From positions 124,001-188,000 of the forward strand of contig JAMDHS010000028.1 in NCBI GenBank assembly GCA_029717555.1: a stretch of 64,000 nucleotides of DNA, in the 5' to 3' direction. The DNA is from Peribolospora baueri (taxonomy: Eukaryota > Basidiomycota > Peribolosporomycetes > Peribolosporales > Peribolosporaceae). The notes beneath the pieces were generated by a model. It searched no databases, was not told where the DNA came from, and saw only the letters and a program-made list of their open reading frames with translations. This document shows, piece by piece, positions 3,978-5,847 of the stretch (position 1 is its first letter; the number at the start of each line of letters is the position of its first letter). The position numbers and the translations under genes are program-made.

Positions 3978-5847
3978 ATGGCGGAAAGTCTGGTTTACAA
4001 GGCGAGCTTAAACCCCATCCCCATCCGGTCCTCGTCTTCGTCCTAGGAAAGATGCTCAGGCGGGCGCTGTACGTTTCTCCAAGGGCTTTTTTTTTCGACT
4101 GACCCCTTTCGTTTGCCTCGTTTTTTGTCTCGCCCTCCCCCCTTCACCCGCTTGGCGCTATTTCGATTGCAGGGCTCGCTCACCGGCCACGGCGGCTGGG
4201 TGACGGCCATCGCCACCTCTTCTGAGAACCCGGATATGATCTTGACTAGCTCTCGCGGTGAGTTCCTCTCGTCTCGTCTCGTCCGTCGACGTCGTGCGAG
4301 CTGGTACGGAGCTGGGGGTTCGGTTGGGCCTAAGCTGAGCTGGCGGGTGTGGTGGCGTGTTGGAGTTGACGGCGAATAGACGGTGGGATCGCGCTAGCAG
4401 TCGTGTTGGAAAAGATATGGATCGGACGGTGGTCGAAGGGAATAGGCAGGCGCCATAACGAGTTGGAGAAGAGACGGTTGCTCATCCCGGAATGGGACTG
4501 CCTGTGTGCCATCGATCAGACAAGACCATCATCGTCTGGCAGCTCTCCCGGGATGACGCCAACTTCGGTTACCCCAAGCGCATCCTCCACGGCCACAACC
4601 ACTTCGTTTCCGACGTCGTCATCTCCTCCGACGGCCAGTTCGCCCTCTCCGCCTCGTGGGACAAGACCCTCCGCCTGTGGGACCTCAACACCGGCGCCAC
4701 CACCCGGCGCTTCATCGGCCACACCGGCGACGTCCTCTCCGTCTCCTTCAGCGCCGACAACCGCCAGATCGTTTCCGGCTCTCGCGACCGCACCATCAAG
4801 CTGTGGAACACGCTCGGCGAGTGCAAGTTCAACATCACCGAGGATGGCCACTCCGAGTGGGTCTCCTGCGTCCGCTTCAGCCCCAACCCTTCCAACCCGG
4901 TGATCGTCTCCGCCGGCTGGGACAAGGTCGTCAAGGTGAGTGGACGAACGTCGTCGTCGTCGTCCAAAGTTCGCCGTCATCGCGTCGGACTTTGTTTCTT
5001 CGTCACGCCACCCTTTTCGCGTCGCTCGTTCCTTTCCTTCGTCCATACGCTCTCCGGGGGTGATGTCATATCTTCCAATATTTGCTACTTCAGAGGGCGT
5101 CGCTGCCCGATGAGACAATTTTTCCACCAAGATCTCTGACCCGACTTTCTCTTTTGTTCGAGACGTTTCCGCCACGTCACCCTTGCGCCGTGCGTCCTCT
5201 CGTCTACGAGGATAGGCCTTGCTGACCCTTATTTTGCCGCGCTTCCACATTCGCGACCAGGTGTGGGAGCTCTCCAAGTGCAAGCTCAAGACTAACCACT
5301 ACGGCCACACCGGCTACATCAACGCGTGAGCTCCGAGTCGTTCATGTCACGTGCGATCCGTATCATCTCCTAATCTTCGCCTCAACCTACGCCCCCTCCT
5401 CGCAGCGTCACCATCTCTCCCGACGGTTCTCTGTGCGCTTCCGGCGGCAAGGACGGCATCACGATGCTCTGGGAGCTCATGGAGGGCAAGCACCTCTACT
5501 CTCTCGAGGCCGGTGACATCGTCAACGCCCTCGTCTTCAGCCCGAACCGCTACTGGCTCTGCGCGGCGACGTCGAGCTGCATCAAGATCTTCGACCTCGA
5601 GAGCAAGTCCATCGTCGACGAGATCAAGCCCGAGTTCACCGGTGTCGGCAAGAACGCCCGCGAGCCCGAGTGCATCTCCCTCGCCTGGTCCGCCGATGGC
5701 CAAGTGAGTCCTTCCCTCTCCTCTTCTCCACGTTCTATGGAATCCCCGCTGACTCGGCTCGTTTTCTCCTCTCGCCGCTTCTCGCCGCAGACCCTCTTCG
5801 CTGGTTACACGGACAACATCGTTCGGGTGTTCACCGTCGTGTCCTAG
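3978..5847 (+). CDS. RACK1: RACK1 / Gbeta-like ribosomal scaffold protein
   Basis: Six exons: 3978-4001, 4173-4257, 4520-4935, 5261-5325, 5406-5703 and 5791-5847, giving 314 residues, the normal RACK1 length. It is a seven-bladed WD40 propeller of the 40S subunit that docks kinases and controls translation (orthologues yeast Asc1, fission yeast Cpc2). Diagnostic segments are GHGGWVTAIATSSENPDMI, SASWDKTLRLWDLNTG, GSRDRTIKLWNTLGECKF and the terminal AGYTDNIVRVFTVVS. The first exon encodes only MAESLVYK and must join GSLTGH. The only donor that keeps frame and homology is AAG|GCGAGC, so intron 1 appears to be GC-AG. All later introns are GT-AG. Intron 3 (4936-5260) hosts a U24-type snoRNA. It is convergent with the downstream SPX-RING gene. 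Confidence 0.97.
5055..5143 (+). ncRNA. U24: U24-type box C/D snoRNA inside RACK1 intron 3
   Basis: The intron holds a C box (GTGATGT, 5060-5066), a D'-like CAGA (5091-5094), a C'-like CGATGAG (5108-5114) and a D box CTGA (5136-5139). A short CGGG/CCCG stem (5055-5058 with 5140-5143) closes it. The two guide segments, TTTGCTACTT before D' and CCACCAAGATCT before D, are those of the U24 family as I remember yeast snR24 and human SNORD24. U24 directs 2'-O-methylation of large-subunit rRNA. Yeast U24 also lives in the intron of ASC1, the RACK1 orthologue, so the host-gene link supports the call. The 3' end is about 117 nt from the 3' splice site. Processing would be by debranching and exonuclease trimming. 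Confidence 0.93.

What the first reader, a model, noticed from the sequence alone, without database searches (positions are those of the whole stretch)
5055..5143. U24 C/D snoRNA kept inside a RACK1 intron
C, D', C' and D boxes, a closing stem and both U24 guide segments are readable in intron 3. Yeast U24 sits in the intron of ASC1, the same host gene. Finding the pair in a GC-rich basidiomycete suggests the association is ancient and has survived other intron changes. Automatic annotation would usually miss it.
Basis: partly seen in the sequence, partly recalled or inferred. Interest (0 to 1): 0.75.

Follow-up and report, generated by a model that had tools for sequence, protein, structure and literature searches.

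The report
U24 snoRNA inside RACK1 intron
A small RNA that tells the cell where to methylate its ribosomal RNA sits inside an intron of the ribosomal gene RACK1 in this smut-related fungus, apparently at the same spot as in distant fungi, and the genome carries a second copy in another gene.

Summary
Window 5055-5143 is a U24 (SNORD24) box C/D snoRNA: 44 bits against Rfam's cut-off of 41, and the best match in the 22-Mb assembly. It lies in intron 3 (4936-5260) of a six-exon RACK1 gene. Guides of 13 and 12 nt match a 25S fragment of the same assembly perfectly, at sites equivalent to yeast Cm1437, Am1449 and Gm1450.

Two things go beyond the finding. First, five RACK1 protein models that translate all or part of this intron carry peptides compatible with both U24 guides, at the same junction. 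The three named ones are Agaricomycotina and Pucciniomycotina; the window's closest named relatives are smuts. The junction also aligns with the yeast ASC1 intron site as I recall it. The U24-RACK1 association therefore probably dates to the Dikarya ancestor, but not necessarily further back: in human and sponges U24 sits in RPL7A and RPL5.

Second, a second U24 copy lies in an intron of a PCF11 gene. Its guides are identical, but it scores 30.4 bits, below the Rfam cut-off.

This is a new member of a known kind. Expression and methylation are untested.

The parts
3978..4001 (+). RACK1 exon 1
   Evidence: splice search that reproduces the 314-aa protein
4173..4257 (+). RACK1 exon 2
4520..4935 (+). 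RACK1 exon 3, ends ...AGWDKVVK
4936..5260 (+). RACK1 intron 3, 325 nt, GTGAGT...CAG, phase 0 after residue 175; branch-like CTGAC with its A 35 nt from the 3' end of the intron
5055..5143 (+). U24/SNORD24 box C/D snoRNA, 89 nt
   Evidence: Rfam RF00069, 44 bits, cut-off 41; assembly-wide E 2.3e-5
5055..5058 (+). 5' side of terminal stem, CGGG
   Evidence: complementary to CCCG 5140-5143 (sequence; model stem)
5060..5066 (+). C box GUGAUGU
   Evidence: position
5077..5089 (+). D' guide AAUAUUUGCUACU, 13 nt to 25S (yeast Am1449/Gm1450 site)
   Evidence: yeast sites
5091..5094 (+). D' box CAGA (overlapping UCAG register 5090-5093 would place the guide on Gm1450)
   Evidence: register is inference from the +5 rule
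5095..5108 (+). hairpin GGGC-loop-GCCC between D' and C'
5107..5113 (+). C' box CCGAUGA (5 of 7 to consensus, my count)
5124..5135 (+). D guide CCACCAAGAUCU, 12 nt to 25S (yeast Cm1437 site; fifth base from D is G, opposite C)
5136..5139 (+). D box CUGA
5140..5143 (+). 3' side of terminal stem, CCCG
5261..5325 (+). RACK1 exon 4, begins VWELSK
5406..5703 (+). RACK1 exon 5
5791..5847 (+). RACK1 exon 6 to stop TAG
   Evidence: stop read

Best explanation
Window 5055-5143 is a functional-type, dual-guide U24 box C/D snoRNA carried in intron 3 of RACK1. It is transcribed by RNA polymerase II as part of the RACK1 pre-mRNA, spliced out, freed by debranching and exonuclease trimming up to the closing stem, and bound by the C/D proteins (all inferred from U24 in other fungi). 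The D guide directs 2'-O-methylation of 25S at the equivalent of yeast C1437, and the D' guide at the equivalents of A1449 and G1450. Pairing is shown here by sequence; methylation is inferred. The U24 intron in RACK1 is most likely inherited, not a local insertion: the same junction holds U24-like sequence in other basidiomycete subphyla and aligns with the recalled ASC1 intron position. A second dual-guide U24 lies in an intron of PCF11 and is probably a redundant, functional duplicate. The confidence given is for the core claim, U24 with both guides in the RACK1 intron; inheritance and the working state of the second copy are less certain (see rivals).
For: Rfam match above cut-off at the exact place. 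Perfect 13- and 12-nt guides to a 25S piece of the same assembly; 0 of 5,000 intron shuffles had two separate 12-nt complements. The target piece aligns to the conserved part of Rfam's eukaryotic LSU model. The host is RACK1: best solved-structure match is Cryptococcus Gib2, 600 bits. Five inserts at this junction (P0027 Infundibulicybe, P0033 Lentinula, P0048 Leucosporidium, P0113 and P0121 from unnamed sources) are compatible with the D' segment at 17 of 17 nt in 5 of 5, and with the D segment at 16 of 16 in 4 of 5 and 15 of 16 in P0121; 0 of 1,000 shuffles of each insert reached either value. The U24 site is K175|V176, aligned with Asc1 K179|A180. Yeast U24 guides Cm1437, Am1449 and Gm1450, and U24 in ASC1 affects 60S formation. 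In the second copy the two guide-plus-box segments differ at 0 of 33 columns and the rest, gaps counted, at 24 of 57 (Fisher P 2.5e-6).
Against: No RNA data: expression, ends and methylation are untested. The only 25S target copy found in the assembly is a broken rDNA piece, and cmscan of the longer stretches did not report that piece; it was reported only when given alone. The cross-species U24 evidence is peptides from gene models, so it shows compatible codons, not DNA. P0121 on its own has only E 0.89. Of 116 proteins without an insert, 5 also reach 15 of 16 for the D segment, though none reaches both segments. The yeast intron position (exon 1 of 537 nt) is recalled; no call shows it. The D' and C' boxes are degenerate. 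For the second copy, the Rfam score is weak (E 0.038), and at the E limit used there (5) 10 of 14 control genomes also ring, none over the cut-off.
Confidence: 0.93

Rival explanations
1. The RACK1 copy is a decaying relic, and the PCF11 copy now does the work, or the reverse.
For: Two copies exist, so one could be lost without cost. Each has imperfect boxes (C box 6 of 7 in both, my count).
Against: Guide-plus-box segments are identical in both copies while the rest has diverged at 24 of 57 columns. The predicted terminal stem keeps pairing in both, with one pair changed on both sides (two sequences only). The RACK1 copy is the better Rfam match (44 against 30.4 bits).
Confidence: 0.12
2. U24 entered RACK1 introns independently in yeast and in basidiomycetes, because highly expressed ribosomal genes are favoured hosts.
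For: snoRNAs move between host genes, and orthologous introns are reported to have gained unrelated snoRNAs independently (PMC3511168, passages). The second copy in PCF11 shows movement or duplication in this genome.
Against: The insert sits at the same junction in all five models found, and this aligns with the recalled ASC1 junction. Repeated entry of the same snoRNA into the same intron is less likely than inheritance.
Confidence: 0.1
3. Chance match in a GC-rich intron.
For: The Rfam score is only 3 bits above its cut-off.
Against: Assembly-wide E 2.3e-5; two perfect guides, 0 of 5,000 shuffles with two 12-nt complements; compatible elements in five other RACK1 models.
Confidence: 0.01

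Closest known systems
Saccharomyces cerevisiae snR24/U24 in the ASC1 intron
   Same: Same family and host gene; one RNA guides Cm1437, Am1449 and Gm1450 (PMC9045821, passages; host gene in PMC2749941, passages). The intron junction aligns if the recalled ASC1 exon length is right.
   Different: This genome carries a second copy in PCF11. The RACK1 gene here has five introns, ASC1 one (recalled).
Human SNORD24 (RPL7A intron 2) and U76; sponge SNORD24 (RPL5 intron 3)
   Same: Same Rfam family and 28S region (PMC3412847, passages; PMC3511168, passages).
   Different: Different host genes. In human the second site (Am2350) is listed under U76, so the two guides are split.
Neurospora crassa CD50 and CD51, S. 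pombe U24 and U24b
   Same: The Neurospora pair covers the two corresponding 26S sites, Cm1418 and Am1430 (PMC2780460, passages).
   Different: Two single-guide RNAs; CD50 is marked IR (intergenic), CD51 intron. The window copy is one dual-guide RNA.
Pleurotus ostreatus SNORD24.1
   Same: A basidiomycete SNORD24 found with Rfam, in an intron (gene g3964; PMC5040776, passages).
   Different: The host gene is not named in the passages I saw, so I cannot say that it is RACK1.
RPL7 and NOG2 introns carrying snR59 and snR191
   Same: Intron positions conserved in 82% and 72% of the fungal species studied, with snoRNAs inside in S. cerevisiae and others (PMC8476143, passages).
   Different: Other host genes and snoRNAs; 'asc1', 'rack1' and 'u24' occur 0 times in that main text.

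Membership tests
SNORD24/U24 (RF00069) | Covariance-model score at or above the gathering score | tested here: met
   44 bits, cut-off 41
SNORD24/U24 (RF00069) | Both U24 guides complementary to adjacent 25S sites | tested here: met
   13 nt and 12 nt perfect to a 25S piece of the same assembly; target aligned to the LSU model
Box C/D snoRNA | C and D boxes with closing stem | tested here: met
   C 6 of 7 (my count), D CUGA, 4-bp stem
Box C/D snoRNA | Internal C' and D' boxes | tested here: inconclusive
   CAGA and CCGAUGA, both degenerate; internal boxes are commonly degenerate (recalled)
Box C/D snoRNA | Stable RNA bound by fibrillarin, guiding 2'-O-methylation | not testable with these tools
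   no RNA data
RACK1-hosted U24 (ASC1 type) | Host gene encodes RACK1 | tested here: met
   600 bits to Gib2; 90% to a Sporisorium protein
RACK1-hosted U24 (ASC1 type) | Intron at the same codon and phase as in ASC1 | tested here: inconclusive
   K175|V176 phase 0 aligns with Asc1 K179|A180; the ASC1 exon length (537 nt) is recalled, not from a call
RACK1-hosted U24 in other basidiomycetes | U24 in the same RACK1 intron | tested here: met
   five of five models found with an insert at this junction are compatible with both guides, one of them with one mismatch in D; peptide evidence only, two of the five from unnamed sources
PCF11-intron U24 copy as SNORD24 | Covariance-model score at or above the gathering score | tested here: not met
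   30.4 bits, cut-off 41, although both guides, C and D boxes are present; so it looks able to work like a U24 but fails Rfam's formal test

The most novel reading that the evidence does not exclude
U24 has been held at one codon of RACK1 since the Dikarya ancestor, and in this lineage a second working dual-guide copy has settled in an intron of PCF11, a gene whose yeast counterpart acts in RNA 3'-end formation and termination (recalled). Methylation of the 60S exit tunnel would then be supplied by two host genes under different control: a snoRNA caught between duplication and possible host change.
Probability: 0.35. Interest if true: 0.5.

Novelty: new member of a known kind. Interest (0 to 1): 0.4.

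Why it matters
Intronic snoRNA positions are reported not to be stable across the eukaryote tree (PMC3511168, passages). A snoRNA kept at one codon of one host in several basidiomycete subphyla, and probably since the Dikarya ancestor, is a useful exception for asking why some intronic snoRNAs stay put. The PCF11 copy offers a test of duplication and host switching within one genome. There is also a practical point: deposited RACK1 proteins named Lentinula lateritia (a metagenome-assembled genome), Infundibulicybe gibba and Leucosporidium creatinivorum contain residues that are probably translated U24 intron sequence.

Tried and rejected
Other RNAs in the RACK1 region: cmscan of 3700-6100 at E up to 5 gave seven matches. 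Only SNORD24 passed its cut-off; snoR79 at 3843-3905 had 20.9 bits against 80 and is taken as chance.

More U24 copies: two in the assembly by DNA and two at E up to 5 by Rfam. Guide patterns with up to two mismatches found 7 places for D' (reversed-pattern control 3) and 18 for D (control 3). By position, only the RACK1 and PCF11 loci had both guides together. Of the five other D'-pattern loci (L015-L019), the script found no C-box-like motif (RTGATG) in the 40 nt upstream of any, and a CTGA downstream only in L019. The 16 other D-pattern places, more than the control's 3, were not examined further.

U24 in the public contig collections: the strict pattern found 0 in genome contigs and 0 in viral contigs. 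A looser pattern found 3 bacterial contigs without a C-box motif or CTGA in the stretch scanned, taken as chance, and 0 viral. RACK1 in viral contigs: none.

Protein searches with the insert regions of P0027 (5 candidates, 2 with E <= 10) and P0033 (1 candidate) gave only P0121 beyond the queries. P0050, flagged by my regular expression as having an insert, has none on reading and was dropped from the count. Only the 120 listed of 676 proteins were scanned, with a fixed expression that could miss unusual junctions.

A covariance model built from the two copies with flanks (R1) was not used further. I looked for a printed ASC1 intron coordinate and found none in the passages seen. 'The fungal snoRNAome' (PMC5824354) and the 1995 U24 paper (PMC307091) are not held, so U24 in basidiomycete RACK1 may already be reported there.

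Full report
What is there. cmscan of the whole 64-kb window reports one match at gathering threshold: SNORD24 at 5055-5143 on the + strand, 44 bits against a cut-off of 41. The same family searched over the 22.1-Mb, 178-contig assembly gives this place as the only match at E <= 0.001, with E 2.3e-5; 0 of 14 control genomes ring. At E up to 5 it gives a second match with 30.4 bits and E 0.038; at that limit 10 of 14 control genomes, the named ones all prokaryotes, also ring, none over the cut-off.

Host gene. I read the protein by eye, and a script over GT/GC...AG pairs in chosen stretches found splice sites that reproduce it: six exons (3978-4001, 4173-4257, 4520-4935, 5261-5325, 5406-5703, 5791-5847), 314 aa, with the snoRNA in intron 3, 4936-5260, phase 0 after residue 175. 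The protein's best solved-structure match is Cryptococcus Gib2/RACK1, 600 bits, ahead of two further chains at 584 and 576 and human-type RACK1 at 541. Its four best listed proteins are from Sporisorium scitamineum (90%), Moesziomyces aphidis (90%), Ustilago hordei (88%) and Malassezia yamatoensis (87%); Tilletia horrida is lower (82%) than, for example, Trametes (86%). Sporisorium is in Ustilaginomycotina. The organism is most likely in or near that subphylum (inference from one protein).

Anatomy. C box GUGAUGU 5060-5066; D' guide 5077-5089; D' box CAGA 5091-5094; a GGGC/GCCC hairpin 5095-5108; C' box CCGAUGA 5107-5113; D guide 5124-5135; D box CUGA 5136-5139; terminal stem CGGG/CCCG. The snoRNA starts 119 nt after the start of the intron and ends 117 nt before its end. 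A branch-like CTGAC has its A 35 nt before the end of the intron.

Target. The D' guide pairs over 13 nt and the D guide over 12 nt. Of 5,000 dinucleotide-preserving shuffles of the intron, 67 contained at least one 12-nt complement to the 471-nt 25S piece and none contained two separate ones; for 11 nt the counts were 205 and 6, for 10 nt 809 and 80. By the +5 rule (recalled), the base five before the D box is a G opposite the C that corresponds to yeast C1437. The D' register CAGA places A1449 opposite the fifth base, and the overlapping register UCAG would place G1450; this is my inference. In yeast U24 guides Cm1437, Am1449 and Gm1450, which are modified in concert (PMC9045821, passages). 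Two other papers print C1437, C1449 and C1450 (PMC4848094, passages; PMC2749941, passages).

Is the association old? No eukaryotic genome collection was available, so I used an indirect test. Some gene models fail to remove this intron, and their proteins then contain translated intron. Among the 120 proteins listed of 676, my regular expression flagged five with an insert after the WDKVVK motif. P0050 was a false flag. The four real ones are P0048 Leucosporidium creatinivorum, P0113 (no named organism), P0027 Infundibulicybe gibba and P0033 Lentinula lateritia. A search with the P0027 insert gave a fifth, P0121 (no named organism; E 0.89, not significant by itself). I tested whether each insert can be back-translated to the U24 D' segment (17 nt) and D segment (16 nt) in any frame. 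The D' segment fits at 17 of 17 in all five. The D segment fits at 16 of 16 in four and 15 of 16 in P0121. For each insert, 0 of 1,000 shuffles reached either value. Among 116 proteins without an insert, 0 reached 16 of 17 for D', 5 reached 15 of 16 for D, and 0 reached both. The distance between the two segments is 44-53 nt in the inserts (offsets), 46 in the window and 47 in the second copy. P0048, P0113 and P0121 begin with residues that fit GTNAGN and end in Q, which fits CAG, as a fully retained intron should; P0027 and P0033 do not, and look like predicted exons drawn around U24 within the intron (read). Leucosporidium is Pucciniomycotina; Infundibulicybe and Lentinula are Agaricomycotina. 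With the window's own Ustilaginomycotina-like host, the U24-RACK1 intron is present in three subphyla, on peptide evidence for two of them.

Yeast. The window junction K175|V176 aligns with Asc1 K179|A180. From memory, ASC1 exon 1 is 537 nt, that is, exactly 179 codons. If so, the intron is at the same codon and phase. No call shows that coordinate. With it, the simplest reading is that the Dikarya ancestor had U24 in this RACK1 intron.

Limits of 'ancient'. Human U24 is in RPL7A and sponge U24 in RPL5 intron 3 (PMC3412847, passages). Neurospora and S. pombe have two RNAs for the two sites, and one of the Neurospora pair is intergenic (PMC2780460, passages). A survey of 44 eukaryotes concluded that intronic positions are not stable across the tree (PMC3511168, passages). 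The claim should therefore be limited to fungi.

Second copy. A DNA search with window 5040-5160 found one other place, C91:237142-237206, 85% identical over query bases 39-102, E 2.6e-12. Rfam scores C91:237121-237208 at 30.4 bits, below the cut-off. It has C box AUGAUGG, both 12-nt guides, D' CAGA and D box CUGA, and a short closing stem in the two-sequence fold. It lies in a 202-nt GT...AG intron of a gene whose hand-spliced protein matches Pfam Pcf11_C (54.6 bits, cut-off 26.7) and CID (36.9, cut-off 23.9), and PCF11 structures. Between the two copies the guide-plus-box segments differ at 0 of 33 columns and the rest, gaps counted, at 24 of 57. One terminal-stem pair changed on both sides and is kept. 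The flanking intron sequences show little similarity. I take it as a second working copy; no RNA evidence exists.

Function. Yeast U24 affects 60S formation: U24 partly restored 60S profiles of asc1-deleted cells at 37 C, and Asc1 protein without the intron did not (PMC2749941, passages). [quoted passage not shown] In Fusarium, loss of the debranching enzyme lowers U24 and four other intronic snoRNAs and raises the lariats that carry them (PMC9606315, passages). This supports the intron-release route inferred here.

Novelty. U24 in the yeast RACK1 gene is long known. Intron positions carrying snoRNAs that are conserved across fungi are published for RPL7 and NOG2 (PMC8476143, passages). A SNORD24 in an intron is listed for Pleurotus (PMC5040776, passages). 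The listings of my ten literature searches (the lists of 15, 21, 64 and 71 were cut short) showed no title or abstract start on U24 in a basidiomycete RACK1 intron or in PCF11. The most relevant survey, 'The fungal snoRNAome', is not held, so I make no claim that this is unpublished. Verdict: a real, correctly read, new member of a known kind, with two useful additions (the conserved junction and the PCF11 copy).

Noticed in passing
G000 contig C91:237121-237208 (L010:1480-1567): Second U24 copy in an intron of a PCF11 gene, 30.4 bits, below the Rfam cut-off, both guides intact.
   Followed up: yes
P0027, P0033, P0048 (named deposited proteins), P0113, P0121 (unnamed sources): RACK1 protein models with 24-104 extra residues that are probably translated U24 intron sequence, i.e. 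annotation errors.
   Followed up: yes
G000 contig C53, L002:1073-1700 and 164-575 (minus strand): Two 25S pieces in permuted order: on the minus strand the piece confidently matching LSU model about 1390-1810 (read) precedes the piece matching 967-1383, with non-rRNA DNA between them. It may be an assembly error, an rDNA relic or a rearrangement.
   Followed up: partly
G000 contig C106:65728-65878 (L006): A 5.8S match (101 bits) followed by a short start of 25S that by eye breaks off, inside a 220-kb contig; it reads as divergent, perhaps an rDNA relic.
   Followed up: partly
G000, whole assembly: Exact searches for the sarcin-ricin loop and the 18S start (patterns from memory) found nothing, so an intact rDNA array seems to be missing from the assembly; the whole-rRNA family searches did not complete.
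   Followed up: partly
window 3843-3905, minus strand: Weak snoR79-like match, 20.9 bits against a cut-off of 80, probably chance.
   Followed up: no
window about 6320-7500, minus strand: Downstream gene on the opposite strand that reads like a RING-finger protein; judged by eye only.
   Followed up: no
L012 about 1120-1850, minus strand: An open frame beside PCF11 that reads like ribosomal protein L9 (uL6), on the other strand; judged by eye.
   Followed up: no
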